A stretch of DNA of 64,000 nucleotides from positions 64,206 to 128,205 of the forward strand of contig JANQGM010000011.1 in NCBI GenBank assembly GCA_028277345.1, in the 5' to 3' direction. Position 1 is the first letter of the stretch, and each line of letters opens with the position of its first letter. The notes under the pieces were generated by a model. It searched no databases. It was not told where the DNA came from and was given only the letters and a program-made list of their open reading frames with translations. Shown here in pieces: positions 5,385 to 39,523 of the stretch. The position numbers and the translations under genes are program-made. Source of the stretch: Candidatus Bipolaricaulota bacterium (GTDB taxonomy: Bacteria; Bipolaricaulota; Bipolaricaulia; UBA7950; UBA9294).

Positions 5385-6791
5385 ATGAGCAAGGCACTGC
5401 GGTCTTGGTGGCGCGACATCGAACCCTGGTACTTCGTGGTTGGGTTGGCCAATCTCGTACTCGGAACCTCATCAGTACTCATTCCATTGAGTGTGGCCAA
5501 GGTGTTCAACCACTCGGTGGGATCGGTTGGGCTGCTCGCCAGCTTGGTGAGCCTTGTCGGCGTTCTCGGTAGCCTGATATGGGGGCGGCTTTCGGACGCT
5601 TCGTATCGCCGGAAACCGTTCATCGTTCTTGGCTATGCCGCTGCAGGACTATGCTTTCTCGGCGTCTCTCTTGCCGGGTCGTTTCGCCAACTCGCCGTTC
5701 TCAACATGCTTCTCAACTTCTTCTGGGTCGCCAATGCATCGGTGACCGTTCTGATCGCGATCGAAAACAGCCGTGAATCCAGTTGGGAAGGCCGCATTAG
5801 TCGGCTCAATCAAATCGGCGCCATGGGCTGGGTCCTCGGATTGGCTTCAGGAAGCCTGTGGATGACCTTGATGCCGCAGCACCTCGGCGAATTAACCGCC
5901 ATCCGTCTGCTGTTCTGGGCCATGGGCCTCATCGGCTTATCCGCATCCCTGTTCGCCGTCGTCAGCATCCCACGTACGGTTCCCAAGTTCACGCAACGGA
6001 AATTCCGAGGGATCCGTCTGGCCATCGGGAATTTCATGTCCGAACGCGCGCGGTATGCGCCGCTTCACCTTTATCATCGCCTTCATCCCAAGCGCGTTTG
6101 GGCGATGCTGACGCATCCGGAAGGGTTTCGACCGGGCACGAAGCGTTTCCTCCTCTCCACACTCATCGCCTTCGTCGCGTTCGGCTTTTTCGGCATCCCG
6201 CTTCCGCTGCTTCTTTCCCAGAAGTTCGGCATGCCCTCGTCGAGCGTGTTCGTTCTGTTCCTGCTTCAACACATCGGCATCGTGCTCGCCTATCCATTGG
6301 CCAGCCGGCGCATTCGCAAGCTCGGAAACCGCTACGTGCAGATGGGCTCGCTCTGGGTGCGCGCCCTGCTCTTCGGCAGCTTCTCGGTGTACCTCGCTCT
6401 GCAGCGGACCGCGCCACCGACGGCCGTTCTTCTTGCCGGGTTCGTCATCTATGGCATCGCCTGGTCGTACTTCCAGCTGTCCGGAATCGCGCTGACCTCA
6501 CGCCTGGCCAGTGAGAAGAATCGAGGTCTGGCCCTCGGGCTGTACAACGCCATCGCAGGGACAGGCTGGATTCTGGCCGGCTTGGGAAGCGGGCTGGTAA
6601 CCGAACGATTCGGATATTTCGTCAGCTTCGCTATCGCGGCAGGGCTGCTTGCCGTTGGCTTGGGCGTGTTGTCGACGGTGCCGGACCCATCGGCGGTGGC
6701 AACGGGATCTCATCCCAAGGGCTCGCAGACGACCATCAAGCGGTGGACTCCCGCGACTCGAGGGCTACGATGGCATCGTGGCTCACACTAG
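5385..6791 (+). CDS. MFS transporter
   Basis: A 468-residue protein with about 12 hydrophobic segments and the MFS loop motif GRLSDASYRRKP after segment 2 (around residue 66). The start at 5385 follows GAGGGGAG by 4 bases; the open frame from 5265 would add a non-hydrophobic extension that contains the promoter region, so it is rejected. The long central loop (about residues 200-255) is basic, as is usual for the family. The substrate is unknown. The gene opens the catabolic island and carries the same promoter box as the amino-acid fermentation operon, so an amino-acid-derived substrate or product is a reasonable guess. Confidence 0.88.
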   Translation: MSKALRSWWRDIEPWYFVVGLANLVLGTSSVLIPLSVAKVFNHSVGSVGLLASLVSLVGVLGSLIWGRLSDASYRRKPFIVLGYAAAGLCFLGVSLAGSFRQLAVLNMLLNFFWVANASVTVLIAIENSRESSWEGRISRLNQIGAMGWVLGLASGSLWMTLMPQHLGELTAIRLLFWAMGLIGLSASLFAVVSIPRTVPKFTQRKFRGIRLAIGNFMSERARYAPLHLYHRLHPKRVWAMLTHPEGFRPGTKRFLLSTLIAFVAFGFFGIPLPLLLSQKFGMPSSSVFVLFLLQHIGIVLAYPLASRRIRKLGNRYVQMGSLWVRALLFGSFSVYLALQRTAPPTAVLLAGFVIYGIAWSYFQLSGIALTSRLASEKNRGLALGLYNAIAGTGWILAGLGSGLVTERFGYFVSFAIAAGLLAVGLGVLSTVPDPSAVATGSHPKGSQTTIKRWTPATRGLRWHRGSH

Positions 6792-6805
6792 CGACCTCGA
6801 TGAGG

Positions 6806-6820
6806 TTCCATATAATGGCA
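6806..6820. promoter_or_regulatory. Candidate IclR-type operator box between MFS and M14 genes
   Basis: TTCCATATAATGGCA matches the island box, with the right arm degenerate at its end. The same string with one change (TTCCATATAACGGCA) occurs at 10564, upstream of the second MFS gene. It lies 15 bases after the first MFS stop. Confidence 0.45.
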
Positions 6821-6854
6821 TAGCGTTCTTATCTACTCGCATTCGCGCGGCTTC

Positions 6855-6869
6855 GTCCATTTTGCGCGA
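6855..6869. promoter_or_regulatory. Second box between MFS and M14 genes
   Basis: GTCCATTTTGCGCGA lies inside a 16-base exact repeat (CTTCGTCCATTTTGCG) of the sequence at the 5.32 kb promoter. It is 49 bases after the 6806 box. Shared exact sequence between two non-coding sites 1.5 kb apart supports a regulatory role. Confidence 0.4.
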
Positions 6870-6989
6870 GTGTCCTGTCAAAGCTCCGGATAGGTACAAG
6901 AACCGCCTGAAAACGAGAGAAAATCGTCTCGTACTTGATCGTGTGCCGCCTCGGAGACAGCAGCATGATCCACCGCCCGATCCGTTTAA

Positions 6990-8836: not shown

Positions 8837-8853
8837 TGTGCTTTGTGAGCTCT

Positions 8854-10440
8854 CTAGTAGACGGCGCCCGCGTTGTCCTTCCACGCCTGAATCGGCTCGT
8901 AGACGCGAGAGGTTTGCGGATTGTTGAGCAGCGCGATGCGCGTCCAGAGCGCGCCGAGCATGTCCCGCGCCATCTCAACCGCCCGGCATGCCTGGCCGAA
9001 GGAGTAGTCGGTGAGGTACTGAATCGCCTCATCTGGCCGGCGCTTGTACAGCTCGGAGGCCCATCGTTCGAGATCCGCCTGGCGGCGATAGAGGGTTTCC
9101 TCGAAGGCCTCCCATGGTGGTCGAACCAGCTCGACCGTGCCTTGATAGAACAGATTCATGAGGTTGCCGATGTTTTCGAACAGCCAGTAGGCCGAGTCCG
9201 GCTGATAGCGTCCGGCATCGCCGGCCTCTCCGATGCCGTACATTCTGGGAACGCTCGTGTTCTGAGCATACCAAGGAATGTGAGGACCGGCCGCCGTTGC
9301 CGCTAATCCGCCCCAGAAAACGCCGCCAATGGGCGCTGGCAAATGCGCGCGACTCTGCGTCACCCAGGATGTAATCGTCTGGGGGCAGCCGATGATGCGC
9401 GAACCACTCCATGCCGGCGCGCACCGATAGTGTCCGGTTTCCGGATCCACCACCGTAGGATAGGCGGCTTCCTGCGCCCCGTAGTCGTCCAGGAACGTCC
9501 CATCGTACGAATCCTTGAGCACGTTCAGCAGATCCCGAACCGCCAGCTTTTCAGTCGCTGGAACGAACAGCGGGTAGCGCTGCGTCGGTTCATAGGGATC
9601 CAATTCCAACCCCGGCGCCAACAAGCTGATGCCCCGCCAAATACGATGGAGGCTGTAATAGGGCTGCTCCAGCGCGCCGCGTGGCCGATTGCGTGCATTC
9701 GTCCCATAGGCCTCGGATGCTCGGAACGGCTCGTGTCCATCCGGATCCCACAGCCCATGTTCGATCGCGAACGAGATGAGATCCGGATCGCACAAGTAGT
9801 TCTCAGGATCATCGGGATCGATCTCCTGGAGGCGGAAAGAGTTCGCCTCGACAACAAAGCAGTCATCGGGAACCCGAGCTGCGGCCCAATGCGTTCCCTG
9901 ATACTGTTCGAACAGCCACGCTTCGTTGGCATCCCCCAGGATGTAGTTATCCGTCCGCCCCCCATAGGTCTCGGTCATCGCACCGCAGAAGAGAACGGCC
10001 TCCCGAGCCGTCTTGCAACGCTCCAGCACCAGTGTCATGAGGAAGTCGCCAATCACGGTTTCGGGCCAAGGCGTTAGCACCTCCACCTCATCCTTCACCC
10101 ATCCACCCGTGCTCGCACCGGCGCTGACCTGATGCTCGTTGATGCCGCCCATCACCATTCCCATGCTGTCGCCGGGCACGTACCGCATCGCCGCCGTGTA
10201 GGCGTAGGTTTCCTCAACCTGGGGAAGCGAGACCGGGCGCGCCACCCATCCGGAAGCAACCGCCTCGGCATTGGGCTTTTCCCGTGACACGGGAATCTCC
10301 AGACGCGATCCCGGAGCATGGCGCCGGCGCGGTACCGACACGATCCGTAGTGCGTCCGTCGAGACCGAATCGCAGTTTCGGGCAACCAGCACCGAGCCAT
10401 CCTGCGTCGCCTTCTTCCCTGCCGCAATCATGTAGCACAT
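8854..10440 (-). CDS. pepD: Peptidase C69 family dipeptidase
   Basis: A 528-residue N-terminal-nucleophile hydrolase. I start it at the ATG at 10440, because GGGGTGAT lies just upstream and this makes the catalytic cysteine residue 2 (MCYMIAAGKKATQDGSVL); a GTG three codons earlier is also open. The family pattern continues with VARNCDSV and GGINEHQVSAGAS. C69 enzymes cleave a broad range of dipeptides after exposing the N-terminal cysteine. No export signal is seen, so it is likely cytoplasmic. Expression probably starts in the 10.45-10.62 kb region shared with the divergent MFS gene, which contains two tandem boxes. Confidence 0.9.
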   Translation of the reverse strand: MCYMIAAGKKATQDGSVLVARNCDSVSTDALRIVSVPRRRHAPGSRLEIPVSREKPNAEAVASGWVARPVSLPQVEETYAYTAAMRYVPGDSMGMVMGGINEHQVSAGASTGGWVKDEVEVLTPWPETVIGDFLMTLVLERCKTAREAVLFCGAMTETYGGRTDNYILGDANEAWLFEQYQGTHWAAARVPDDCFVVEANSFRLQEIDPDDPENYLCDPDLISFAIEHGLWDPDGHEPFRASEAYGTNARNRPRGALEQPYYSLHRIWRGISLLAPGLELDPYEPTQRYPLFVPATEKLAVRDLLNVLKDSYDGTFLDDYGAQEAAYPTVVDPETGHYRCAPAWSGSRIIGCPQTITSWVTQSRAHLPAPIGGVFWGGLAATAAGPHIPWYAQNTSVPRMYGIGEAGDAGRYQPDSAYWLFENIGNLMNLFYQGTVELVRPPWEAFEETLYRRQADLERWASELYKRRPDEAIQYLTDYSFGQACRAVEMARDMLGALWTRIALLNNPQTSRVYEPIQAWKDNAGAVY

Positions 10441-10543
10441 CGTTATCACCCCAGAGCTAGATCCTACACGATATCACGATACGACAGAACGTGCCATTTA
10501 CCAGGCGATGCATGCGACATGAACGCCATAAGTCAACACTGCG

Positions 10544-10619: not shown

Positions 10620-11798
10620 GTGAACGCATCGAGCGAGCCATCCACATCGCGAGCCGCCCGGCAGACCGTTCGTATCCTCGTTTTCGCAGCAACCCTACTG
10701 CTAACCATGGAAGCGGCCCTGGTCTTGCTGCTTCAGCTTTACCTCAAGGACCTCGGGGCATCGCCGCTGATCATCAGCCTGAGCGGAAGCCTCGCTTGGG
10801 CGGGAACCCTGCTCGCAAGCCCGGTTTGGGGAGCCTGGAGCGACCGATTTTCCAGCCGCCGCCTGGTCGGCATCATCTTCATCGGAAGCGTGGCGGCAAC
10901 CGCACCGCTTGCTGGACTTCTCGTCGCGCCAGCCGTTCTCGTCTTGGGCACGCTACGCCGTTTCCTCGCCAATGGTCTCGCTCCCATCGGCATGCGGTTG
11001 ATCTCGGCATCGAGCACGCATCGGAACAGGGGACGGAATCTGTCCTATTTATCGGCGGCGCGCGCCGCCGGATTCGTCTTCGGAGGCATCCTGGCGGGCG
11101 TATGGCTAGAGAGAATGGGATTCCGATGGACCTTCATCCTCGTCGCCGCCCTTCCCCTGTGTGTGCTCCCCTTCGTCTCTCGGCTCCCCCGCCGTTCCGA
11201 GGCCTCACGGGGCCGCGCTTCGTTTCGTTCACTCCGCGGCCTTGGGGCCATTTGGACGCCGCAACTGACGCTGCTGTACGCGGCCATCACGCTCCGGCAG
11301 TTGGCGACAACGGGGGTTGGCGCGCTGGCCTATGTGTATATGTCCTCTTTCGGCATCGGAAGCGAGATGATGGGCGTGATCGGCGCTGTGAATCCGGCGG
11401 TCGCCGTACTCGCCACGCTCGGCGTCGGCATGATTGTCGATCGCATCAACCGCAAGGCCGTCATCTCGCTCGGATTTGCCGTCGCCATGCTCTATCCGCT
11501 GGGCTATGCCTGGGCCACGACGCCGTGGATGTTCGCCTTGGCCGCCATGCCGTTGGGCCTCTCGTTTGGCGCCTATTACTCCGGATCAACCGCTCAGATT
11601 GGGCGGACCATCCCCTTCGAACATCAAGGCACCATGTTCGGATTGTTGGATTCGTTCAGGGGATTGGGCGGACTTCTCGGTCCGATCCTTGCGGGCGTGC
11701 TTGTCACCGCCTACGGCTACCGTCCCATGTTCTTGATCATGGCGGCCCTATCGGCGCTCGCCCTGTTGCTTTCCATTGCCGGAACCCGCGCGTCGTGA
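10620..11798 (+). CDS. MFS transporter
   Basis: A 392-residue protein with about 12 hydrophobic segments and the loop motif GAWSDRFSSRR after segment 2. It starts at a GTG at 10620; no convincing Shine-Dalgarno precedes it, so the exact start is uncertain. It is divergent from the C69 dipeptidase gene and shares its tandem-box region. The stop lies 26 bases from the convergent DegT gene. The sequence differs from the 5.4-kb MFS gene, so this is not a recent duplication. Uptake or export of a peptide breakdown product fits the setting but is inference. Confidence 0.88.
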   Translation: MNASSEPSTSRAARQTVRILVFAATLLLTMEAALVLLLQLYLKDLGASPLIISLSGSLAWAGTLLASPVWGAWSDRFSSRRLVGIIFIGSVAATAPLAGLLVAPAVLVLGTLRRFLANGLAPIGMRLISASSTHRNRGRNLSYLSAARAAGFVFGGILAGVWLERMGFRWTFILVAALPLCVLPFVSRLPRRSEASRGRASFRSLRGLGAIWTPQLTLLYAAITLRQLATTGVGALAYVYMSSFGIGSEMMGVIGAVNPAVAVLATLGVGMIVDRINRKAVISLGFAVAMLYPLGYAWATTPWMFALAAMPLGLSFGAYYSGSTAQIGRTIPFEHQGTMFGLLDSFRGLGGLLGPILAGVLVTAYGYRPMFLIMAALSALALLLSIAGTRAS

Positions 11799-14796: not shown

Positions 14797-14800
14797 CGTT

Positions 14801-17307: not shown

Positions 17308-18333
17308 TCAGGCGCCGGGGATGAAATCGTCACGAACCTCATCCACAACAGCGTAGAAACAGATCCATTCCCCTTCCATGACCTGGGGCCTCGACCTCAC
17401 GCCGGCAATCATGCCGTCGCACGGCGTGTCGATACGGGCAATGACCTCGCCGTGCAGGTCGTATAGGATACCCAGAGGTTCGCCGGCCTTCATTGGGCTC
17501 AGGAATTCGAGGCTTCGCTCGCCGACCCACATGCCGGTCCCCGGCGCCAATACCGTTTCTTGGTGTCCGACGTTCCAGGTTCCCGCATACTCCGCCTGTC
17601 CGTCGATCATGTTGTAATGCTTCATCACATTGAGGAACGAATCTCGCAAGGCATCGCCGACCTCGTGGAAATCGGCCGTCAGGGTACGGCACAATCCCCC
17701 CAACTCGATACTGATGGCGGGCACACCCTGGGCGACAAGCTGAGAGCTGGGGTTCCCTCCTCCGGAAGGGCTCGTCATGATCATGTTCCAGATCGGTCCC
17801 ATCGCCGCGCCCAGCTCGCGGCATGCCGGCGTATCGGCCGTAAACATGACCGAGGTCAGGTAGGAGTGATTGCCTCCGGAGTGAATGTTGATCTGCAAAT
17901 CGCAGGTCGGGAGCATGGCCGCGAAATGAGCGGCCGCGATCCGCGCCGTCGGGTATCCCTCGGCATCGCCCGGGTAAATCCGGTTCATGTCATAGGTGAA
18001 TCCATCCGCCGGATTTCCGCGCGCCCCCGTCAAAAAGGCGTCCGGATTCATCACGGGGCAGGCCACGATCGCACCGTTCACCTTGGAGACATCCAGCGCT
18101 TCGAACAGCTTGATGATGGAGATGGCGCCCTCGGCTTCATCTCCGTGCGTTCCCCCATTGAGCCAGAGGATGGGGCCGTCTCCAGCGCCGTTGAAGATGA
18201 CAATCGGGATATCCCGGTCGTTTCCAAAATGATCCTTCCCCGTTGGAATACCGCAGCGCACAATCTCGCCCGGCTTCGCCGTTCCCGTCCCAACGGACAA
18301 GGTTCCATCCGCATGTCGTTTGCTCTCAGGCAT
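17308..18333 (-). CDS. Succinylglutamate desuccinylase/aspartoacylase-like deacylase
   Basis: A 341-residue zinc enzyme of the AstE/AspA group. The zinc ligands are HGDE in WLNGGTHGDEAEGA (about residue 63) and the histidine in LQINIHSGGNHS; the catalytic glutamate is in AISIELGG. I use the second ATG (18333) because GAGAGG is 7 bases from it and only 1 base from the first ATG. These enzymes remove acyl groups from N-acylated amino acids. In this operon it could act on N-acyl or N-carbamoyl amino acids and thus stand in for a missing carbamoylase; that is inference. The gap to the hydantoinase gene is 39 bases. Confidence 0.85.
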   Translation of the reverse strand: MPESKRHADGTLSVGTGTAKPGEIVRCGIPTGKDHFGNDRDIPIVIFNGAGDGPILWLNGGTHGDEAEGAISIIKLFEALDVSKVNGAIVACPVMNPDAFLTGARGNPADGFTYDMNRIYPGDAEGYPTARIAAAHFAAMLPTCDLQINIHSGGNHSYLTSVMFTADTPACRELGAAMGPIWNMIMTSPSGGGNPSSQLVAQGVPAISIELGGLCRTLTADFHEVGDALRDSFLNVMKHYNMIDGQAEYAGTWNVGHQETVLAPGTGMWVGERSLEFLSPMKAGEPLGILYDLHGEVIARIDTPCDGMIAGVRSRPQVMEGEWICFYAVVDEVRDDFIPGA

Positions 18334-18348
18334 GTTCATTCCTCTCTT

Positions 18349-20858: not shown

Positions 20859-22103
20859 CTAGAGGGACGGTGTGACGTTGACGCCATCCATGTAGACGGC
20901 CATGATATTCGCTCGGTCGAGCAACAGACTGGGGTCAGCGAGCACATCGCCATTCACGATAACAAAGTCCGCTCGCTTGCCCACTTCGATCGACCCGATC
21001 TCATTCCCCATGCCGATGCATTCGGCGGCGGTTTGCGTCGCTGCGACCAGGGCTTCCATGGGCGTGAATCCACCCTTGATCAGTTCGAGTATCTCCAGCG
21101 CGTTTTCTCCATGTGGAACGACAAAACCGGCATCGGTTCCAGCCGCGATCTTGACGCCGACTTCTTTGGCTCGGCGCAACGTCTCCCATTTCTCCTCATA
21201 GACCTTGTTCAGCCAAGCCCAAGCCTCTGGCGACACATCGCGCTGACCGCCCCCCTGCTCGACACTGCGCGTATTGACAATGAGCGTGGGTACGTAAAAA
21301 GTGCCTGCCGCCACCATGGTTTCAAGTTGCTCATCCGTCAGCCAGTGCGCGTGCTCCAATGTGTCGACGCCAGCTCGAAGTGAATCCGTGATTCCCCGCC
21401 CCCCGGCAGTGTGGGCGGCCACCATCTTTCCGGCCCAATGGGCCTCTTCGCAAATGGGCTGGATCTCCTCGTACGTCATCTCCTGACGCCATGGCGTGTG
21501 CAGGTTGCGGTAGTCGCCAACGCACGGATTGATTTTTAAGACATCGGCGCCCCATTTCAGCTGAGTCCGCGCCGCCTTGCGGCAGGCCCACGGACCATCG
21601 CAAACGCCCGTTCGCCCCTCGACGTTCAGGTCGGGAGACCACCAGGCCTTGTCCATGTGTCCGCCAGTCGCCGTCAATCCTTGCCCCGCAACTTTCAAGC
21701 GAGGCCCCGGGAGGATGCCTCCATCGATCGAATCTCGCACAGAGATGTCGACATAGGCCGGCGATGACAGGCTGCGAAGCGCCGTGTATCCCATCGAGAG
21801 ATCGACGAGCACATGCTTGTAGGTTTCCAACGCCAACGCGCCAAGGGACCCTTTGAGCTGCGCCAGTGCGTAGTTGTCCGTCGGGCCTCCAGGGGTATGA
21901 ATATGCGTATGCGCATCGATCAGACCGGGCAGCACCGTGTACGTGCTCGCATCGATCACGCCTTCGTTCCCACGCTCCGGCTGCGGAGCCTGGGGCTCAA
22001 TCGACACGAACCGGCCATCACGAATCGTCACACTCATGTTGTGGGCGGGGGCCTTTCCTGTTCCATCGATCAGCGTTCCCGCCGTCAGACGCATCGTATT
22101 CAC
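20859..22103 (-). CDS. Metal-dependent amidohydrolase (imidazolonepropionase/prolidase-like)
   Basis: A 414-residue amidohydrolase with GTG start preceded by AAGGAG. The metal site is complete: HTHIH in GLIDAHTHIHTPGG (about residue 65), a lysine in GADVLKINPC, His in MVAAHTAGG and DTLEHAHWLTD, and Asp in AAGTDAGF. This layout is shared by the Sgx9260-like carboxypeptidases that cleave Xaa-Pro or Xaa-Arg/Lys dipeptides and N-acyl amino acids. It lies directly after the ABC permease genes, so its substrate is probably what that importer brings in. Confidence 0.88.
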   Translation of the reverse strand: MNTMRLTAGTLIDGTGKAPAHNMSVTIRDGRFVSIEPQAPQPERGNEGVIDASTYTVLPGLIDAHTHIHTPGGPTDNYALAQLKGSLGALALETYKHVLVDLSMGYTALRSLSSPAYVDISVRDSIDGGILPGPRLKVAGQGLTATGGHMDKAWWSPDLNVEGRTGVCDGPWACRKAARTQLKWGADVLKINPCVGDYRNLHTPWRQEMTYEEIQPICEEAHWAGKMVAAHTAGGRGITDSLRAGVDTLEHAHWLTDEQLETMVAAGTFYVPTLIVNTRSVEQGGGQRDVSPEAWAWLNKVYEEKWETLRRAKEVGVKIAAGTDAGFVVPHGENALEILELIKGGFTPMEALVAATQTAAECIGMGNEIGSIEVGKRADFVIVNGDVLADPSLLLDRANIMAVYMDGVNVTPSL

Positions 22104-23021: not shown

Positions 23022-23030
23022 TCTTCCGCC

Positions 23031-23951: not shown

Positions 23952-23967
23952 GCCTTCGCCTCCAAAG

Positions 23968-23998
23968 GATCCCCCGCGCAGTCTCCACACGGGGGATC
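23968..23998 (-). terminator. Intra-operon hairpin between binding protein and permeases
   Basis: GATCCCCCG (23968-23976) pairs with CGGGGGATC (23990-23998), 9 bp with a 13-base loop. It lies after the binding-protein stop and just before the permease ribosome-binding site. Such hairpins stabilise or partly terminate the message, giving more binding protein than permease. Confidence 0.7.
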
Positions 23999-24034
23999 GG
24001 ACTCATTTCAGGTGCCTATTACGGCGCCGTCATC

Positions 24035-25618
24035 CTAATCCGCGAGCTGAACGTCATAGAAAATAGCTTGGTAGTTGCCCACTTCCCATCGAAGTCCAGT
24101 CAGGTTCGACGCGTACACTACGGTTTGCGTCGTTTCCTGTAGCGGCACCATCAGCGCGAGGTCATAGACCAACTCCTGTAGCGTTGCATAGATCGAACAA
24201 CGCTCGTCAGGAGACGTTGCCGATTCCGCTTCCGCCAACAGACGGTCAATAACCGAACTGGAGTAATGCTGCCAGTTGAACTTGAAGTATCCCGGAGCAG
24301 GAATGTTGTCCGTGTGCATGAGAATACCAAGAACGCTTGGATCGGTGGCCACCCATCGCACAAGACCGGCCTCGTACTCGTTGTTCATAATGAGCTCGTC
24401 CTGGCGTGCCTTGGTGACGTTTTCGACGTTGAGGTCGATCCCCACTTTCCTAAGCTCGGCTTGAACCGCCGTCATCAGTGTCGCCTTGAAGATGATGGGA
24501 CAATAGATGCTCAATTCTTGCCCGAACTTATCGCGGATACCATTTCCATTCGTATCGACCCAGCCGGCTTCTTCAAGAATCGCTTCCGCCTTCGCAGGGT
24601 CGTACGGATAGTAGCCGTCGCCACCGGGCCAATAGCAGAAGGTACTGGAGGCCAGCACGCCAGTCGCCGCTTTCAGGTAGCCGAAGAACACGTTGTCGAC
24701 GATGGTTTCCAAGTCAAGGGCGTGGAAGATCGCCTGACGCACCGCACGGTCATTCGTCGGGAATCGGCTTGTATTGAGATAGAGCGTAACCGGCACACCG
24801 CCGACGCGGCCGAGGAAGACATCGAAATCGTCGTCGCCTTCGAATGCCATCACATCGAGGGGATCCATGAGATCGCCGACGTGAATTTCGCCGGTTTCCA
24901 ATGCGGCCGCTCGCGTCGAGTTCTCCTTGATGAATTTGAATCCGAGGGTATCGATGTAGGCGGGGCCGTTGTGAAGTGCGTTGGCGGGCGCCCAATTGTA
25001 CTCCGTGTTCTTCACGAGCGTAATGTGGCTTCGCCGTACCCACTCAACGAATTTGAAGGGCCCCGTTCCCACGGGATTCTCAGCGAACCACGCATCGCCG
25101 TTTGCCTGCACAGCCGTCGGCGAGACAGGCGCCAAATACGTCAGAACGAAGCCGCTGATCATGGCGCCATACGGACGCGTGTATTCCACGGTGAAGGTAA
25201 GATCATCGTGCACCACCGTGCCTTTATAGGGACCGAGGTAATCGATGGCGGCCTGCGACCCGGTCGCTGGATCGGCAATCGAATCGTAGGTGAATTTGAA
25301 GGCATCCGCATTACACGGTGTGCCATCATGAAATAGGATTCCCGGTTTCAGGTGGAAGGTAATCGACGTATAGTCTGCCGCAACATCCCAGCTTTCAGCC
25401 AACCACGGGACTGGGTTCCCCGCGTCGTCCAAGGTAATCAACGAATCGAAGACCTGTCGGATCACCTGCAACTCATGTCTGGATTGTGTAATGCGAGGAT
25501 CCAGGGTCGCTAAATCATCACGATCTTCGCCCCAGACCACGGTTAGATCCGCAAGTGCTGCGACAGACGTCAACAGCAACAATAAACCAAGAAGTACCCC
25601 TAACCATCGCCTATGCAT
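24035..25618 (-). CDS. Peptide-type ABC transporter solute-binding protein (family 5)
   Basis: A 527-residue exported binding protein. The start at 25618 has AAGGAGG 7 bases upstream. The signal peptide is residues 1 to about 23 (LLLLLTSVAALA-D). Family 5 features follow: DDLATLDPRITQSRHELQVI, ESWDVAADYTSITFHLKPGI, and HDGTPCNADAFKFTYD. These proteins capture oligopeptides or similar solutes for the two permeases downstream. It is the first gene of the operon running to pyrB, with a good promoter at 25728-25755. Confidence 0.93.
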   Translation of the reverse strand: MHRRWLGVLLGLLLLLTSVAALADLTVVWGEDRDDLATLDPRITQSRHELQVIRQVFDSLITLDDAGNPVPWLAESWDVAADYTSITFHLKPGILFHDGTPCNADAFKFTYDSIADPATGSQAAIDYLGPYKGTVVHDDLTFTVEYTRPYGAMISGFVLTYLAPVSPTAVQANGDAWFAENPVGTGPFKFVEWVRRSHITLVKNTEYNWAPANALHNGPAYIDTLGFKFIKENSTRAAALETGEIHVGDLMDPLDVMAFEGDDDFDVFLGRVGGVPVTLYLNTSRFPTNDRAVRQAIFHALDLETIVDNVFFGYLKAATGVLASSTFCYWPGGDGYYPYDPAKAEAILEEAGWVDTNGNGIRDKFGQELSIYCPIIFKATLMTAVQAELRKVGIDLNVENVTKARQDELIMNNEYEAGLVRWVATDPSVLGILMHTDNIPAPGYFKFNWQHYSSSVIDRLLAEAESATSPDERCSIYATLQELVYDLALMVPLQETTQTVVYASNLTGLRWEVGNYQAIFYDVQLAD

Positions 25619-25727
25619 GCAACAACCTCCTTGACTCCAAATCTCAAAGGACTCCAAAGATTTCTAGACTCCGTCCGAAAGGTGTTCGGAGCTTGCATCA
25701 CCTCCAGCTAGGCGATCTACGGTCTTC

Positions 25728-25960: not shown

Positions 25961-25995
25961 CCACGTGAGGCGCTCGTCACAAGCACCTCACGTGG
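25961..25995 (-). terminator. Terminator of the second importer operon
   Basis: CCACGTGAGG (25961-25970) pairs with CCTCACGTGG (25986-25995) around a 15-base loop, 34 bases after the permease stop. On the minus strand a pyrimidine-rich run (CTTCATTTCACATT) follows. Confidence 0.7.
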
Positions 25996-30141: not shown

Positions 30142-30170
30142 ATCATAGAACAAGCGCCGCCCCTTGTCAA
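30142..30170 (-). promoter_or_regulatory. Near-consensus promoter of the second importer
   Basis: On the minus strand, TTGACA (30170-30165), a 17-base spacer and TATGAT (30147-30142). Predicted transcription start is near 30135. The leader to the GTG is about 190 bases. Confidence 0.7.
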
Positions 30171-33570: not shown

Positions 33571-34278
33571 TTAGTTGAATTCCTTCGGTAATGGGGGGGA
33601 GTACAACCCGACTCGGCTGTGTGTGACGCCCATGTCCGCGATCATCTCGGCATACTTGAAGGCCACCACAGTCGGATCGAGCACGGGAACACCGAGTTGC
33701 TTCTGAAGATCCTCACCATAGCCGGCCATGGCCGCGCACCCGAGGATCAACACCTCAGCGCCATCTTTCACGACCATCTCCTCGGCAAGAGCCAGTCCCC
33801 GGCGTTTCGTTTCCTCCGGATGTGCATCCAGGTCCGCCGTCGACAGCTCCAGTGCTCGAATGCATGCCAGCCGCGCAAGCAATCCGGCGCGTCGAACGTG
33901 CCGTTCCTTCATGGCCATTCGCTCGCGTTTCTCGGTGAGCAGGCCGAATTTGCTTCCCAAGGTCAAGGCCACGGCGTAGGTCGCCTCTTCCATGGCGATC
34001 ACGGGAATGGATGAAATCTCCCGCGCCGCTTCCACCCCCGCATCGCAGAAACACGCCAATAAAATGGCATCGTAGTCGCTTTCTTGTGCGCTCTTGACAA
34101 GCTCCAGGGTCGGAGGAACGGCATAGGCTTCGTCATAGGACGAGTCGATCGTCACAGGCCCTTTCTCAGGGCACACGACGTCAACTTCAGTATCCGTTCG
34201 CTTAATTCGCTCGACAACGCTTCGAATCTTGTTTGTGATGGTCTCAGAAGTATTGATGTTGGCGACGAGTATTTTCAC
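33571..34278 (-). CDS. Asp/Glu/hydantoin racemase family protein
   Basis: A 235-residue protein with the two-cysteine racemase site: first cysteine in AILLACFCDAGVEAAREIS (about residue 75), second in LILGCAAMAGYGEDL (about 182). N-terminal MKILVANINTSETIT resembles hydantoin racemase rather than glutamate racemase. The reaction inverts 5-substituted hydantoins or amino acids without a cofactor. Its start overlaps the stop of a second racemase gene by 4 bases, and the two proteins are clearly related but divergent. Confidence 0.88.
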   Translation of the reverse strand: MKILVANINTSETITNKIRSVVERIKRTDTEVDVVCPEKGPVTIDSSYDEAYAVPPTLELVKSAQESDYDAILLACFCDAGVEAAREISSIPVIAMEEATYAVALTLGSKFGLLTEKRERMAMKERHVRRAGLLARLACIRALELSTADLDAHPEETKRRGLALAEEMVVKDGAEVLILGCAAMAGYGEDLQKQLGVPVLDPTVVAFKYAEMIADMGVTHSRVGLYSPPLPKEFN

Positions 34279-34988
34279 GCGGCTTCACCTCCTCGAGAGC
34301 GAGGCGACGCATACAACGCTCGCTTCGAATGCCGAACGCCGGTTTCCGTCATCGCTTCGGCGAGCTTAAAGGTTACCGTTGTCGGGTCCAGAACGACAAT
34401 CCCCAACTCTCGTTCAAGTTCATCGGCATAGCCGACCATGCCGGCGCAGCCAAGGATAATCACTTCAGCGCCATCCTGCTCGATCGCCAGCCGAGAAACA
34501 TCCTTGACTCGGCGCTTGGTCAATCCGGGATCGGCCTCGGTTTGAGCGACTGACAGATCCAGGGCGCGCACCGAAGCACAGGCCGGATCCAATCGGAAAC
34601 GGCGAACATCTTGCTCCTTGGAAGGAATCCGTGTGGAAAGCGGCGTCAGGATGGAATAGGTATGACCCAACATGGTGGCCACAGCCAAGGTCGTTTGCTC
34701 GATGCCAAGCACGAGGATGTTCGCCGCTTCGCGAGCGGGCTCCAAACCAGGATCCGAGAAGCAGGCGATGATGGCGGCATCATATCCCTCGGCCTCGGCC
34801 CAGCGCACCTTCTCCAGCAACGGAGGAACGGACATCGCCATATCGGTCGCGGACTCGATCGCCGACGGCGCCCCTTCCCCACAACACACCTCAAGCACCG
34901 TCTCAGGCCGGCGAACGCGTTCCAGCGACTCCCGAATGGATTCCGTCATCTCCTTTGAGCTATTGGGATTGATGACCACGATTTTCAT
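34275..34988 (-). CDS. Asp/Glu/hydantoin racemase family protein (second copy)
   Basis: A 237-residue paralogue of the downstream racemase. It starts at 34988 with GGAGGAG 5 bases upstream, overlapping the iorB stop (ATGA). It has MKIVVINPNSSKEMTESI, the first cysteine in IIACFSDPGLEPAREAAN and the second in VIILGCAGMVGYADELE. Two different racemases in tandem suggest either two substrate ranges or a hetero-oligomer. With the hydantoinase at 15.9-17.3 kb they could convert L- and D-hydantoins to one enantiomer. Confidence 0.88.
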   Translation of the reverse strand: MKIVVINPNSSKEMTESIRESLERVRRPETVLEVCCGEGAPSAIESATDMAMSVPPLLEKVRWAEAEGYDAAIIACFSDPGLEPAREAANILVLGIEQTTLAVATMLGHTYSILTPLSTRIPSKEQDVRRFRLDPACASVRALDLSVAQTEADPGLTKRRVKDVSRLAIEQDGAEVIILGCAGMVGYADELERELGIVVLDPTTVTFKLAEAMTETGVRHSKRALYASPRSRGGEAA

Positions 34989-35581
34989 GACTTCTCCTCC
35001 CCAAGCAATGCACGTCCAGCCCGAAACGCCGCCGCATTGAGATCCGCATGTTTCGTGGGCACGCTGGCCAGGACGACCTTCTCCCACAGTTCCGCATCCA
35101 CCTCAAACAGGGTGGAGAAGGCGCCCAACATCACAACGTTCGTCACACGTGGATTTCCCAGATCCATGGCCGTTCGGGTCGCATCGATCAGATCGACCGA
35201 ACGAACGGAACCCCGAAGCGATGCAGCGATGGCTTCATCAGCCGGATACTCCAGTTTACCGCTACTGACAGAGATCGGAATGATGGGCTGCGCGTTGCAC
35301 AACGCGCGCGCATCAGGGTGCATGAGCGGAAGACCGCGAAGAGCCTCCAGTGGCTCGAAGGCCAAGAGGTAGTTCATCCCGCCCGTTCTCACCACAGGCG
35401 ATGCCACCTCATCACCCCAGCGGACGTGGCTCAAGACGCTGCCGCCCCGGACCGCGAGTCCGAGAACATCGGATTTCTTGACATCGTATCCCGCGCATAG
35501 CCCTACCTCCGCCAAAATGTTGCTTGCAAGCAGGGTTCCCTGGCCTCCGACACCTGCGACAAGAATATCGGCTCGCTTCAT
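34985..35581 (-). CDS. iorB: Indolepyruvate (2-oxoacid):ferredoxin oxidoreductase, beta subunit
   Basis: A 198-residue gamma-type subunit. It opens DILVAGVGGQGTLLASNILA and continues KKSDVLGLAVRGGSVLSHVR, both diagnostic of IorB and the related OFOR gamma domain. With IorA it oxidatively decarboxylates aryl or other 2-oxoacids to acyl-CoA, passing electrons to ferredoxin. Start at 35581 overlaps the iorA stop (ATGA), so the subunits are made in step. Common in anaerobes and archaea that ferment amino acids. Confidence 0.92.
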   Translation of the reverse strand: MKRADILVAGVGGQGTLLASNILAEVGLCAGYDVKKSDVLGLAVRGGSVLSHVRWGDEVASPVVRTGGMNYLLAFEPLEALRGLPLMHPDARALCNAQPIIPISVSSGKLEYPADEAIAASLRGSVRSVDLIDATRTAMDLGNPRVTNVVMLGAFSTLFEVDAELWEKVVLASVPTKHADLNAAAFRAGRALLGEEKS

Positions 35582-37371
35582 GAGGTCGTCTCCTCTCCTG
35601 GACGAGCGATCGCTGATGTCGGGCAAACTTGCCGACACATATCGCATCCAACGCACAACGTCAGATCGATCTGCGCCTTTCGCTTGCCGGTCTTTTCATC
35701 GATTTCGCTTGCCTTGACAATGGCCGGACAGCCGAGTTTGAAACAGGTTCCACAGGCGATGCATCGCTCCGCGTCGACAACGTAAGCGGCTAGATCGGGC
35801 TTGGACACCTGAACGCACAGTCCTTCAGTGATCAGAACGGACGGCCCATCGAAAGCGAGGCACACGTCCAAGCCGTCCTTGACGGCGGCCATATCAAACG
35901 CGTCCACCACCTCAACCACCTCGACACCCATCGCTCTCACCAGAGGTTCGATGGGAATCCTCAACGCCCCTTTCCCATGGAGCGCCCAGTCTGTCCCAGG
36001 GTGATCTTGATGCCCCGTCATGGCCGTCGTCCCGTTGTCCATCACGATGACCACGCCGCGCCCCTGGTTGTGCACCATGTTCGCCAGCGCAGGAAGTCCG
36101 GAATGAAAGAGCGTTGAATCACCGATTGTGGCCACCGCCTTCTCGGGAAGCTCGGCAATCGCCATGCCGTGCAGCACGCCGATGCTCGCACCCATGCATC
36201 CCATCGTGTGCTGGGCGTTGAACGGGGGCAGACAGCCTAAGTTGTAGCACCCGATGTCTCCGGCGACGGCAATCCCCATCTTGGCCAACCAGTAATAGCT
36301 CGACCGGTGTGGGCACCCCGCGCAAAGGACCGGCGTTCGAGGCGGAAGATCCAGGTCGAGAGCGATCGGGTCCGCGATGGCCTCCTCGCGAATCAACCCG
36401 GCTTTGGTAGACAGCGATGCCAGTCGATCCGGTATCAACTCATCGTACGGCGGATAGAACGCCTTCCCTTTTACATCAAGTCCCATCGCTCGAATCTCCC
36501 CTTCGAGAAAGGGATCGAGTTCCTCGACGACAACCGCCTGCTCCACGCGCTCCACAAACGAGCGAATGAGGTTCCTAGGCAACGGATACGTCATGCCCAA
36601 CTTGAGAACCGAGGCCGTTGGAAAGACCTCTCGGACATAGGTGTAGGTCACGCCGCTGGTGATCATCCCGAGTGAGGAATCCCTCATCTCCACGCGATTG
36701 GATGCCAGGGTTTCCGCGTAGTCGGCCAAGTCAACCAGCCTCTGCTCGACAAGAGGGTGCCGTTCCTTCGCCCACATCGCCGTGCAAACGTATTTGCGTT
36801 GATTCCTAACGAACGGTGGCACGCTATCAGGCATCGGTGAACGCTCGCCGAGCGTCACGATGCTCTTTGAGTGGGATACGCGCATGGTCGTTCGGATCAG
36901 AACGGGTGTATCGTACTGTTCGGAGATATCAATCGCCTGAAGAACGGCATCCTTGGCTTCTTGGCTGTCCGCTGGCTCAAGAAGCGGAACCTTGGCCAGC
37001 TTCGCATACCACCGATTGTCCTGCTCGTTCTGCGAGCTGAACATGCCGGGATCATCGGCTGTCACAATCACCAATCCCGCCTCACTGCCTGTATAGGCGG
37101 CATAGAAGAGAGAATCCGCAAGCACGTTCATCCCGACTTGTTTCGTCGTGACCAAGGTTCTCCGACCGGAGTAAGCGGCACCTGCAGCAGCATCCATCGC
37201 AACCTTCTCGTTGGTCGACCATTCCGCATAGATGTCGGAGCCGTACTCGCGAGCGATGGCTTCCAGAATCTCGGAACTGGGCGTTCCAGGATACCCTGTC
37301 GCGACCTGGATGCCTGCTTCGTAGGCACCTCGGGCTAATGCTTCGTTTCCTGACAAGAGCACTTTGCTCAT
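35578..37371 (-). CDS. iorA: Indolepyruvate (2-oxoacid):ferredoxin oxidoreductase, alpha subunit
   Basis: A 597-residue subunit. I place the start at 37371 (MSKVLLSGNEALARGAYEAG), the usual IorA beginning; the frame opens 15 codons earlier. It holds the pyruvate-oxidoreductase domain (TGYPGTPSSEI), the thiamine-diphosphate domain (ATIGDSTLFHSG and VIVMDNGTTAMTGHQDHPGT), and two C-terminal 4Fe-4S clusters, CIACGTCFKLGCP (about 541) and CVGCDMCRQVCP (about 576). The enzyme is oxygen-sensitive and cytoplasmic. Neighbours supply its 2-oxoacids and use its acyl-CoA. Confidence 0.94.
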   Translation of the reverse strand: MSKVLLSGNEALARGAYEAGIQVATGYPGTPSSEILEAIAREYGSDIYAEWSTNEKVAMDAAAGAAYSGRRTLVTTKQVGMNVLADSLFYAAYTGSEAGLVIVTADDPGMFSSQNEQDNRWYAKLAKVPLLEPADSQEAKDAVLQAIDISEQYDTPVLIRTTMRVSHSKSIVTLGERSPMPDSVPPFVRNQRKYVCTAMWAKERHPLVEQRLVDLADYAETLASNRVEMRDSSLGMITSGVTYTYVREVFPTASVLKLGMTYPLPRNLIRSFVERVEQAVVVEELDPFLEGEIRAMGLDVKGKAFYPPYDELIPDRLASLSTKAGLIREEAIADPIALDLDLPPRTPVLCAGCPHRSSYYWLAKMGIAVAGDIGCYNLGCLPPFNAQHTMGCMGASIGVLHGMAIAELPEKAVATIGDSTLFHSGLPALANMVHNQGRGVVIVMDNGTTAMTGHQDHPGTDWALHGKGALRIPIEPLVRAMGVEVVEVVDAFDMAAVKDGLDVCLAFDGPSVLITEGLCVQVSKPDLAAYVVDAERCIACGTCFKLGCPAIVKASEIDEKTGKRKAQIDLTLCVGCDMCRQVCPTSAIARPGEETTS

Positions 37372-37393
37372 TCGTGCAGTCCCTTCTTCTTTG

Positions 37394-39523
37394 CTAACAG
37401 CGCTTTGCGAACTCAATCAACGCATCAACCGCTACAACACCTCGCCCGCCCGATAGCACGAGCAGTGGGTTCATTTCGATCGCCACCAGCGATTCCGGAC
37501 ACGACAACGCAAGATCACTGATGCACAGAACGACGTCTTCAAGTGCATGCCGTTCGTCCACACCGAGTCCACGCGATTCGCTCAGGAGCCTCCCTTCCGC
37601 GAGGGAAGAGAGCATTCGATGCACATCTGGACGATTTAGGGGCGGGAGGCCGATCGCGCGCTCCCGTACGATCTCAACCCGCGTGCCTCCCAATCCAACG
37701 ATGACAAAGGGGCCGAACGCCGCGTCCCTGGCCATCCCAACAAGTAGTTCCACTTGCACTCCCTCGACCATGCGCTGAACGACCAGGGAGGGCGAACGAA
37801 CGGAAAGCTGCTGCATGACATCGAGCAACTCCTGAGCCCCATTTCGCACGTCGTCCGCGCTTCGCAATCCCAATCTGACAAGTCCGTGATCCGACTTGTG
37901 CGCAACAGAGGAGGTCGCTCCCTTGAGAACGACCGGATACCCCATGGTGTTCGCCTGCGCGATGGCGGCCTCCACGCTGTCACAGCGGTATTCCTCAACA
38001 CAGGGAATCCCCGCACGTGAGAGCAGCGCCTTGCCCTCGATTTCATCGAGCACGCCAGTCCGAGTTCCATCGAACAGATCGCTCCTATCGATGAATGCGC
38101 GTTCACGGCGTGACGCAAGCCGCTCTTCGCCGTACCGCGCAAGGTGGCGTATGGCCAGCAGCCCTTCGCGAGTTCCTTGTAGCAGAGGGATTCGGCCTTC
38201 AGCGAATTGCTGTCGCAGCTCCGGGTTCAGACCTCCGGACAGGTGGCTGAACGCCACCATCGGCTTGCGCGTTCTGAGGCTCACCTCGGCGGCCGTTCTG
38301 GCCACCACAGAGAATTGCTCGCGTTGCGCGTCTGAGAGGCCGGAGGGTGCGTCCTGCGCGAAGACAACCATGTCAACCGCATCAGCAACAACCGCGTCGA
38401 CACAAGCCTTGTACGTCTCTTCAAGCCGGCCGCTCCCCCAGGCATCGAGCGGGTTGGCAATCTCCGCATAGTCCGGAAGGACACGGCGGAGCGCTGCGGC
38501 CGTTCGTTCCGACCAGTCGGGGAAAAGAAGCCCCGACGCCTCAGCAAGGTCGGCGGAAAGGCTGATCGCGCCCCCTGATAGCGTGAGCATCCCGACGCGC
38601 GCTCCGGCGGGATAGGCTCCGCTCAAGACGGCAAATGCGATCGCCGTTTGGACCAACTCGTTGAGATCATGAACTCGGATGACTCCGTACTTCCGAAACA
38701 CGGCATCGTAAACGTCGTCCGCGCCTGCGAGCGCTCCTGTATGAGCGACCGTGGCGCGTCGAGCGATGTCGGAGCGTCCGACCTTGAGAATAATGAGCGG
38801 TTTACCCACCTCTTGCGCCAGTTCGGCAACACGCACAAACTGCTCGGGGCGGCGAAACTCTTCGATGAACGCGGCAACGACACGCGTCTCAGGATCGTTC
38901 AGGAAATACCGTAGATAGTCCGTGCTATCGAGAACGGCCTCATTCCCGCTCGACACGACCGTACGCAGCCCCATGTCTCGCGCTCCATTGATCAGCGTCA
39001 ACCCGATGGACCCGCTCTGAGAGACAAAAGCGATCGAGCCCGGCGGAAAATCGTGCGGTAGCGGCGCGCTAAACAATGCGCTTGACGTCCCCGGATTGGA
39101 GATGCCGACACAGTTCGGTCCGCAAAACGCTATCCCGTACTCTGCGCAAAGCGACTGCAGCGCCTTCTGGAGTTCCCTTCCTCTTGAGTCGGATTCTCCG
39201 AACCCACTGGCGAACGCCCACCCGGCTCGGATGCCCAGTTCAGCCGCTTCCTCCAGCACGGGGACGACACGATCACGACCGAGAAGAATGGCGACGGCAT
39301 CGATGGCTCCATCGCAAGCAACGGCATCCGAGAGTGATGGATAACAGGGATAGCCGTGAACTTGATCGTAGTTGGGATTGATCGGAAGGATCCGTCCCGA
39401 GAAACCCAGGGCATCCAGATTCCGAATCGCTTGACTCCCCGGTCCCGGTTTTTGAGAGGCACCGACAATCGCCACAGAGGAGGGCGCAAGTAGATGCCGA
39501 ATCGAATCGTGCGGATTCATCAT
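37394..39523 (-). CDS. NDP-forming acyl-CoA synthetase (alpha-beta fusion)
   Basis: A 709-residue fused enzyme. The N-terminal CoA-binding part has SVAIVGASQKPG, the active-site phospho-histidine lies in ATVAHTGALAGADD (about residue 257), and the C-terminal ATP-grasp domain has YPVVLKGATSSVAHKSDHG. It converts acyl-CoA, phosphate and ADP (or GDP) to acid, CoA and NTP, the energy-conserving step of archaeal-type amino-acid fermentation. It is first in the operon, 22 bases before iorA, under a strong promoter overlapped by two boxes. The start may be either of two adjacent ATGs. Confidence 0.93.
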   Translation of the reverse strand: MMNPHDSIRHLLAPSSVAIVGASQKPGPGSQAIRNLDALGFSGRILPINPNYDQVHGYPCYPSLSDAVACDGAIDAVAILLGRDRVVPVLEEAAELGIRAGWAFASGFGESDSRGRELQKALQSLCAEYGIAFCGPNCVGISNPGTSSALFSAPLPHDFPPGSIAFVSQSGSIGLTLINGARDMGLRTVVSSGNEAVLDSTDYLRYFLNDPETRVVAAFIEEFRRPEQFVRVAELAQEVGKPLIILKVGRSDIARRATVAHTGALAGADDVYDAVFRKYGVIRVHDLNELVQTAIAFAVLSGAYPAGARVGMLTLSGGAISLSADLAEASGLLFPDWSERTAAALRRVLPDYAEIANPLDAWGSGRLEETYKACVDAVVADAVDMVVFAQDAPSGLSDAQREQFSVVARTAAEVSLRTRKPMVAFSHLSGGLNPELRQQFAEGRIPLLQGTREGLLAIRHLARYGEERLASRRERAFIDRSDLFDGTRTGVLDEIEGKALLSRAGIPCVEEYRCDSVEAAIAQANTMGYPVVLKGATSSVAHKSDHGLVRLGLRSADDVRNGAQELLDVMQQLSVRSPSLVVQRMVEGVQVELLVGMARDAAFGPFVIVGLGGTRVEIVRERAIGLPPLNRPDVHRMLSSLAEGRLLSESRGLGVDERHALEDVVLCISDLALSCPESLVAIEMNPLLVLSGGRGVVAVDALIEFAKRC

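What the first reader, a model, noticed from the sequence alone, without database searches (positions are those of the whole stretch)
5385..39523. A 34-kb island that may take cyclic ureides and peptides all the way to ATP
Seen: peptidases (M14, C69), amidohydrolase, hydantoinase, AstE-like deacylase, two hydantoin-type racemases, three aminotransferases, IorAB, NDP-forming acyl-CoA synthetase, 2-hydroxyacid dehydrogenase, two ABC importers, two MFS carriers and one IclR regulator. Established: IorAB plus NDP-forming acyl-CoA synthetase gives substrate-level ATP from 2-oxoacids. Inference: the island is one pathway, with racemase and hydantoinase feeding unusual (D- or cyclised) amino acids into ferredoxin-linked fermentation. 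I do not know of this exact combination being described.
Basis: partly seen in the sequence, partly recalled or inferred. Interest (0 to 1): 0.75.

Follow-up and report, generated by a model that had tools for sequence, protein, structure and literature searches.

The report
Hydantoinase-type pyrimidine pair in mosaic island
In this uncultured bacterium (Candidatus Bipolaricaulota), the 'hydantoinase' of a supposed ureide-eating island sits beside an overlooked aspartate carbamoyltransferase, and the two look like the cell's only genes for early pyrimidine (DNA/RNA base) synthesis, while the peptide and 2-oxoacid fermentation genes around them are extra blocks that a close relative lacks at that place.

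Summary
That unit changes the interpretation. The ATCase is the only one found in the genome. Among 40 relatives it never co-occurs with the usual PyrB-PyrI, and its genomes lack a canonical dihydroorotase and carbamoyl-phosphate synthetase. Yet this genome keeps pyrK-D-F-E. All four ATCase motifs are present. In spirochaetes the same hydantoinase subfamily lies beside pyrK-pyrD or pyrE-pyrF-pyrD. Most likely the pair is a stand-in PyrC-PyrB that makes a cyclic ureide (dihydroorotate). Synteny with a congener shows two blocks (about 7 and 23 kb), carrying the peptidase, Opp, IorAB, acyl-CoA synthetase and racemase genes, flanking this core in the window and absent from that place in the congener. 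One genome carries that cluster besides a complete pyr operon, so a catabolic or dual use is not excluded. No enzyme activity was tested.

The parts
5265..6791 (+). MFS transporter; borders the core directly in congener G004
   Evidence: Pfam MFS_1; 69% identical homologue next to ATCase in G004:C74
7054..8766 (+). M14 zinc carboxypeptidase (in extra block 1)
   Evidence: PF00246; absent from this place in G004
8854..10449 (-). C69 dipeptidase-like (in extra block 1)
   Evidence: PF03577; NF033678 212 bits, below its cut-off of 250
10620..11798 (+). MFS transporter (in extra block 1)
   Evidence: PF07690
11824..12987 (-). DegT-family PLP aminotransferase (in extra block 1)
   Evidence: PF01041
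12992..13774 (-). IclR regulator; IclR also directly follows the ATCase in relatives G010 and G019
   Evidence: PF01614/PF09339
13867..14817 (-).
   Evidence: TIGR00670 368.5 bits; motifs STRT/HPTQ/HPLP/RIQ and the GRT arginine conserved; only ATCase in the genome
14801..15895 (-). MocR-like aminotransferase domain; lies between hydantoinase and ATCase in most loci that carry it; inferred to serve aspartate
   Evidence: PF00155/PF12897
15892..17268 (-). Hydantoinase/dihydropyrimidinase-fold amidohydrolase; proposed non-canonical dihydroorotase (PyrC')
   Evidence: TIGR02033 386.1 bits, just under its cut-off of 393.25; nearest solved structures are D-hydantoinase and dihydropyrimidinase; lacks the HxHxR arginine and MANT asparagine seen in PyrC of G008
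17308..18339 (-). AstE/aspartoacylase-like deacylase (extra block 2)
   Evidence: PF24827
18349..18759 (-). Glyoxalase/VOC-like protein (extra block 2)
   Evidence: PF13669
18815..19759 (-). DUF362 protein (extra block 2)
   Evidence: PF04015
19756..20838 (-). NicX / M29 aminopeptidase-like protein without Pfam match (extra block 2)
   Evidence: Foldseek to 2,5-dihydroxypyridine dioxygenase 7cn3, E 1.8e-27, and to AmpT/PepS; mean pLDDT 69.7
20859..22103 (-). Amidohydrolase, closest to the Xaa-Pro dipeptidase model but below its cut-off (extra block 2)
   Evidence: PF01979, NF051886 291.5 bits vs cut-off 500
22119..25657 (-). Opp-type permeases (OppC, OppB) and solute-binding protein, set 1; no ATPase
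   Evidence: PF00528, PF00496
26030..29998 (-). Opp-type permeases and solute-binding protein, set 2; no ATPase
   Evidence: PF00528, PF00496
30286..31305 (-). D-2-hydroxyacid dehydrogenase
   Evidence: PF02826
31280..32296 (-). NAD-dependent epimerase/dehydratase-like protein
   Evidence: PF01370
32306..33526 (-). Class I/II aminotransferase
   Evidence: PF00155
33571..34278 (-). Hydantoin/allantoin-type racemase 1
   Evidence: PF01177; allantoin racemase 5lfd E 2.3e-30
34275..35087 (-). Hydantoin/allantoin-type racemase 2
   Evidence: PF01177
34985..35656 (-). IorB-like subunit
   Evidence: PF01558; NF005322 208 bits vs cut-off 237
35578..37416 (-). IorA-like 2-oxoacid:ferredoxin oxidoreductase subunit
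   Evidence: TIGR03336 642 bits vs cut-off 650.9; 55-69% identical to IorA of eight of the nine hydantoinase-linked IorA loci elsewhere, 34% to the ninth
37394..39523 (-). NDP-forming acyl-CoA synthetase (Acd)
   Evidence: PF13549/PF13607/PF13380

Best explanation
The window holds a mosaic, not one ureide-degrading pathway. Its core, 13867-17268 (-), is a hydantoinase-aminotransferase-ATCase unit. Inferred mechanism: the ATCase joins carbamoyl phosphate to L-aspartate; the hydantoinase-fold enzyme, standing in for PyrC, closes N-carbamoyl-aspartate to dihydroorotate; PyrK-D, PyrE and PyrF, encoded on contig C20, finish UMP; and the aminotransferase supplies aspartate. With no carbamoyl-phosphate synthetase detected, carbamoyl phosphate would come from carbamate kinase or from ureide/arginine catabolism. 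The flanking blocks import peptides or ureido/acyl amino acids, trim and transaminate them, and pass 2-oxoacids to IorAB and the NDP-forming acyl-CoA synthetase for reduced ferredoxin and ATP. Shown: gene content, motifs, absence and presence patterns, synteny. Inferred: every substrate and direction.
For: ATCase passes TIGR00670 and all four authentic-ATCase motifs of Barba 2013 Table 1 (our residues); in A. aeolicus the Arg and Gln of the RxQ motif bind the C5 carboxyl of PALA (PMC3880350). It is the sole ATCase in G000. Of 27 of 40 genomes with an ATCase over cut-off, 16 have PyrI, 10 have the hydantoinase-linked type, none has both, and one is a contig-edge fragment without PyrI. Hydantoinase-linked genomes show no canonical dihydroorotase (G012's one hit over the cut-off, 282.9 vs 279.05, also scores 386 as a hydantoinase and lies elsewhere), and no genome of the family shows CPSase over its cut-off. 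OMPDC is present in 8 of the 10, and G000 has a pyrK-D-F-E operon. The hydantoinase subfamily lies beside PyrK-PyrD in L117, L119, L145, before PyrE-PyrF-PyrDK in L121, and beside PyrE in L143. G010 and G019 have hydantoinase-carbamate kinase-ATCase. Synteny with G004 separates the core from the fermentation blocks. ATCase adjoins PEPCK in L103, fitting an oxaloacetate/aspartate link.
Against: The hydantoinase-fold enzyme lacks the Arg and Asn that canonical dihydroorotase has and scores as a hydantoinase. G040 carries the hydantoinase-aminotransferase-ATCase-Acd-IorAB-racemase cluster in addition to a complete pyrF-E-B-I-K-C-D operon, so there the pair does something else. In Chloroflexota L129 and Conexibacter L144 the hydantoinase is paired with an M20 carbamoylase, a catabolic pairing. 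The racemase is nearest to allantoin/hydantoin racemases. Acd-IorAB linkage is not explained by pyrimidine synthesis. The genome is a MAG (89.6% complete), so absences in it alone are weak. G012 and G019 showed no OMPDC.
Confidence: 0.6

Rival explanations
1. Catabolic phosphorolysis (improved form of the first reader's idea): racemase and hydantoinase open a 5-substituted hydantoin or dihydropyrimidine, the carbamoyltransferase passes the carbamoyl group to phosphate, carbamate kinase makes ATP, and the freed amino acid goes through aminotransferase, IorAB and acyl-CoA synthetase for a second ATP.
For: Acd, IorA, IorB, racemase, hydantoinase, aminotransferase and ATCase together in L090, L091, L098, with closely similar sets in L104, L112 and L113; G040 keeps this cluster besides a full pyr operon; carbamate kinase adjacent in G010, G019, L090 and beside the ATCase in L121; IclR next to the ATCase; YgeW and UGTCase precedents for catabolic transcarbamoylation.
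Against: ATCase keeps all aspartate-site motifs, unlike the catabolic pseudo-ATCases; it is the sole authentic-type ATCase in the hydantoinase-ATCase genomes checked except G040, apart from a tandem second copy in G054 and weaker pseudo-ATCase-like hits; pyrE-F-D lie in the same locus in L121; aspartate would give oxaloacetate, not a known IorAB substrate (own knowledge).
Confidence: 0.15
2. Dual use: one hydantoinase-ATCase pair runs forward for pyrimidine synthesis and backward to harvest carbamoyl phosphate and aspartate from dihydroorotate or carbamoyl-aspartate, which would explain both the pyr linkage and the Ior/Acd linkage.
For: Both linkages occur in L121; no CPSase in the family, so carbamoyl phosphate economy is unusual; the pair is single-copy in nearly all genomes.
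Against: No direct evidence of reversal; in the window the Ior block is about 17 kb away and separable.
Confidence: 0.2
3. Chance neighbours: unrelated amino-acid genes gathered in a MAG with no functional link.
For: Congener G004 lacks both flanking blocks.
Against: Nine of 72 loci carry IorA within 10 kb, eight of these nine IorA proteins being 55-69% identical to the window's, several in the same gene order across phyla; about one would be expected if genomes carry about two such genes per 3 Mb (rough estimate, not computed).
Confidence: 0.05

Closest known systems
PyrB-PyrC (ATCase-dihydroorotase) pair of de novo pyrimidine synthesis, e.g. the DHO-ATC complex of Aquifex aeolicus (PMC3880350)
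   Same: Authentic-type ATCase next to a cyclic amidohydrolase of the dihydroorotase superfamily; sole ATCase in the genome; pyrKDFE elsewhere
   Different: The partner belongs to the hydantoinase/dihydropyrimidinase side of the superfamily, with a shortened loop after HTH and without the HxHxR arginine; no PyrI; aminotransferase inserted
Pseudo-ATCase / ureidoglycine carbamoyltransferase clusters (Barba et al. 2013, PMC4016543)
   Same: ATCase homologue with allantoinase/hydantoinase and carbamate kinase genes nearby
   Different: Those have HPLA/H[ST]LP and lost RxQ motifs; this one keeps HPLP and RIQ
YgeW-hydantoinase-carbamate kinase ureide/purine clusters
   Same: Hydantoinase with carbamoyltransferase and carbamate kinase; this genome has one too, on contig C29
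   Different: YgeW is a different carbamoyltransferase (window gene scores 39.9 bits vs cut-off 453)
Hydantoin utilisation (hydantoin racemase, hydantoinase, carbamoylase)
   Same: Racemase and hydantoinase families; carbamoylase partner in L129 and L144
   Different: No carbamoylase identified in the window core; a carbamoyltransferase instead
IorAB plus NDP-forming acyl-CoA synthetase amino-acid fermentation
   Same: Both enzymes adjacent with an aminotransferase in the same run of genes
   Different: Extra racemases and the recurring linkage to hydantoinase-ATCase

Membership tests
Authentic ATCase (PyrB) | Motifs S[TR]RT, HP[ST]Q, HP[LG]P, RxQ (Barba 2013 Table 1) | tested here: met
   STRT, HPTQ, HPLP, RIQ in the window gene and relatives
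Authentic ATCase (PyrB) | Score over the TIGR00670 cut-off | tested here: met
   368.5 bits vs 236.95
Authentic ATCase (PyrB) | Carbamoylates aspartate | not testable with these tools
   Needs an enzyme assay
Pseudo-ATCase / UGTCase | Loss of RxQ and HPLP motifs | tested here: not met
   Motifs retained
YgeW knotted carbamoyltransferase | NF005538/TIGR03316 cut-off | tested here: not met
   39.9 vs 453 and 36.8 vs 500
D-hydantoinase/dihydropyrimidinase | TIGR02033 cut-off | tested here: inconclusive
   386.1 vs 393.25, just under; best structural match
D-hydantoinase/dihydropyrimidinase | Metal-site residues: HxH, carboxylated Lys, His, Asp | tested here: met
   H59, H61, K142, H176, H232, D305 invariant in 10 relatives; that they are the ligands is by homology
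D-hydantoinase/dihydropyrimidinase | Full-length loop after HTH | tested here: not met
   7 residues shorter than 1nfg in the alignment; short in all subfamily members shown
Canonical dihydroorotase (type I) | TIGR00857 cut-off | tested here: not met
   225.7 vs 279.05
Canonical dihydroorotase (type I) | HxHxR arginine and asparagine of the substrate clamp | tested here: not met
   HTHPVYLDD and HFAYAKPG against HTHFRDPG and MANT in PyrC of G008; their role in binding carboxylate is from general knowledge
Canonical dihydroorotase (type I) | Genomic role: linked to ATCase or pyrD/E/F and no other dihydroorotase | tested here: met
IorAB | TIGR03336 and IorB equivalog cut-offs | tested here: inconclusive
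   642 vs 650.9; 208.4 vs 237
NDP-forming acyl-CoA synthetase | CoA-binding, succinyl-CoA ligase-like and ATP-grasp domains | tested here: met
   PF13380, PF13607, PF13549
Hydantoin racemase | Asp/Glu/hydantoin racemase family, nearest to hydantoin/allantoin racemases | tested here: met
   substrate untested
Single conserved pathway island | Same gene set linked in near relatives | tested here: not met
   Two blocks absent from the syntenic place in G004

The most novel reading that the evidence does not exclude
An authentic ATCase and a hydantoinase-type dihydroorotase are run in reverse, or both ways, with carbamate kinase in CPSase-less anaerobes, so that a cyclic ureide gives carbamoyl phosphate (one ATP) and an amino acid whose 2-oxoacid gives a second ATP through IorAB and NDP-forming acyl-CoA synthetase; the linked set is conserved across several bacterial phyla.
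Probability: 0.2. Interest if true: 0.8.

Novelty: new variant of a known kind. Interest (0 to 1): 0.52.

Why it matters
If right, a hydantoinase-type enzyme replaces dihydroorotase in a single-copy pair with ATCase in Bipolaricaulota, and homologues suggest the same in Thermodesulfobacteriota/Myxococcota, Chloroflexota and Spirochaetota. That would fill a pathway gap and correct a common 'hydantoinase' annotation. With no CPSase detected in the Bipolaricaulota family, it also makes the origin of carbamoyl phosphate a testable question, parallel to the recent work in Thermococcales (PMC13260591). The recurring junction with the Acd-IorAB-racemase cassette is unexplained and could reveal a link between amino-acid fermentation and pyrimidine or ureide metabolism.

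Tried and rejected
Pseudo-ATCase/UGTCase and YgeW identities were rejected on motifs and scores. The idea that the ATCase is a spare next to a normal PyrB was rejected for this genome by the census. TIGR01740 missed pyrF in the family, so PF00215 was used instead. The TIGR00857 hits over cut-off in Caldisericota and Coprothermobacterota carry HVHFDDPG or HVHLDDPG, not HxHxR, and most sit near thymidylate kinase and DNA-replication-type genes, so they were not counted as clear dihydroorotases. Paper searches for hydantoinase with carbamoyltransferase and carbamate kinase, and with ATCase gene clusters, gave only the Barba paper; hydantoin racemase with indolepyruvate oxidoreductase gave one unrelated transcriptome paper. 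The held library is open-access only. AlphaFold models used shallow alignments (mean pLDDT about 69) and support fold, not substrate.
Full report
Origin. The window is bases 64206-128205 of contig C33 of a 2.76-Mb, 40-contig metagenome-assembled genome, 89.6% complete. Its nearest named relatives are mostly Candidatus Bipolaricaulota/Acetothermia MAGs.

Observation. The run from 39523 down to 11824 lies on the minus strand. Missed were an ATCase-type carbamoyltransferase at 13867-14817, which overlaps the end of the aminotransferase gene, plus DUF362, a glyoxalase-like protein, an epimerase, and a 360-aa protein without Pfam match whose predicted fold resembles 2,5-dihydroxypyridine dioxygenase and M29 aminopeptidases. 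The only ABC-ATPase-like frame found in the window is UvrA, so neither Opp set has its own ATPase. A terminator-like 16-pair hairpin at 25961-25995 and promoter-like sites at 30170 and 25755 suggest at least three transcription units, although counts of such sites are near the shuffled expectation.

The core. The ATCase scores 368.5 bits against TIGR00670 and aligns over its whole length with solved ATCases. It has the four authentic-ATCase motifs of Barba et al. 2013 and none of the pseudo-ATCase changes. The Arg and Gln of the RxQ motif are those that bind the C5 carboxyl of the inhibitor PALA in A. aeolicus. The adjacent 458-aa enzyme scores 386 bits to D-hydantoinase, slightly under the cut-off. 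Its best structural matches are dihydropyrimidinase and D-hydantoinase, but a loop after HTH is shortened, and it lacks the HxHxR arginine and the asparagine seen in PyrC of relative G008.

Census. Among 40 genomes of the class, 27 have an ATCase over cut-off. Sixteen of these have PyrI. Ten, including this genome, have an ATCase linked to the hydantoinase and no PyrI. None has both, and the remaining one, G026, is a fragment at a contig edge next to OMPDC. Eight of the ten have OMPDC, and in this genome it lies in a pyrK-D-F-E operon on contig C20. The dihydroorotase model finds nothing over cut-off in nine of the ten. In G012 it finds one hit, 282.9 against 279.05, which also scores 386 as a hydantoinase and lies elsewhere than the ATCase. 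CPSase large subunit is absent at cut-off from every genome of the family. The family therefore appears to need a dihydroorotase and an ATCase, and this pair is the only candidate detected.

Wider relatives. A scan of GTDB genomes with the hydantoinase profile gave 74 loci; 40 of 72 loci with a clear hydantoinase have an ATCase within 10 kb. These ATCases mostly form one group, with a separate spirochaete/Myxococcota group, apart from PyrI-linked PyrB; two label changes on the tree against 12.6 in shuffles. Patterns seen: hydantoinase-ATCase alone; hydantoinase-carbamate kinase-ATCase-IclR (G010, G019); OTC-hydantoinase-ATCase-carbamate kinase, or this without the kinase found, in Thermodesulfobacteriota/Myxococcota; PyrK-PyrD-hydantoinase in spirochaetes; ATCase, carbamate kinase, hydantoinase, PyrE, PyrF, PyrDK and aminotransferase in one spirochaete locus (L121); hydantoinase-M20 carbamoylase in L129 and L144. 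In genomes reached through the hydantoinase-ATCase loci, that ATCase is again the only strong one except in G040 and a tandem copy in G054; weaker hits of 240-260 bits in four genomes look like pseudo-ATCases, some of them near other carbamoyltransferases. G040 holds a complete pyrF-E-B-I-K-C-D operon as well. G040 is the best evidence that the cluster can have another purpose.

The fermentation cassette. Acd, IorA, IorB and a racemase adjoin hydantoinase-aminotransferase-ATCase in L090, L091 and L098, with close variants in L104 (no aminotransferase between) and L112/L113 (transport and amino-acid genes between), partly in L121, and as Acd-IorA-IorB-racemase-hydantoinase-PyrE in L143. IorA in eight of the nine loci that carry it is 55-69% identical to the window's; the ninth, L103, is 34% identical. 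The association is therefore real, and in L104 AstE, DegT, glyoxalase-like and DUF362 homologues are nearby as well. Its biochemical reason is not shown.

Synteny. In congener G004, window 1.97-6.6, 13.88-17.21, 40.8-43.6 and 45.5-51.5 kb align in order on one 34-kb contig. The stretches 6.8-13.87 and 17.3-40.3 kb are missing there, with essentially no and about 0.26 kb between flanking genes. Whether the window gained them or G004 lost them is not resolved. In the stretches read around the pair in G005, G012 and G016 none of the block-2 fermentation genes was found. The claimed 34-kb island thus falls into a stable core and two variable blocks.

Interpretation. The best-supported reading is that the core makes dihydroorotate and the flanking blocks ferment imported peptides or modified amino acids. 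The direction of the core is inferred from single-copy status, motifs and pyr linkage, not from any assay. A catabolic or dual use stays open because of G040, the racemase, and the cross-phylum Ior/Acd linkage.

Compared with what is known. No description of this pairing was found in the held open-access library; the nearest is the 2013 reaction-module paper on pseudo-ATCases. Anabolic carbamate kinase and CPSase-free carbamoyl-phosphate supply are described for Thermococcales.

Noticed in passing
G000:C29:2390-8400 (L003, L005): A second hydantoinase lies with carbamate kinase and two tandem YgeW-type carbamoyltransferases, a typical ureide/purine cluster; the kinase is the genome's only match to the arcC model.
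   Followed up: partly
G000:C28:98463-101924 (L002): A further carbamoyltransferase is followed by a protein that reads like a corrinoid protein and preceded by a dehydrogenase-like gene; substrate unknown.
   Followed up: no
Family of the window genome (G000-G024): No carbamoyl-phosphate synthetase large subunit over cut-off in any genome, although pyr genes are present.
   Followed up: partly
L117, L119, L145 (Spirochaetota): The same hydantoinase subfamily directly follows pyrK-pyrD, suggesting a stand-in dihydroorotase there too.
   Followed up: partly
L129 (Chloroflexota) and L144 (Conexibacter): Hydantoinase paired with an M20 carbamoylase instead of ATCase, so the partner has been swapped.
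   Followed up: partly
G048:C63, G049:C22, G050:C35, G051:C133: A dihydroorotase-like gene with HVHFDDPG/HVHLDDPG in place of HxHxR, in three of the four near thymidylate kinase-like genes, in Caldisericota and Coprothermobacterota.
   Followed up: no
L114:10789-11835 (Syntrophaceae): A second, very divergent ATCase copy with altered motifs (PSNRT, TQIP) lies two genes after the first.
   Followed up: no
window 45526-50399: uvrB and uvrA are adjacent and syntenic with congener G004, anchoring the comparison.
   Followed up: yes
window 57989-58568: A cluster of six tRNA genes on the minus strand.
   Followed up: no
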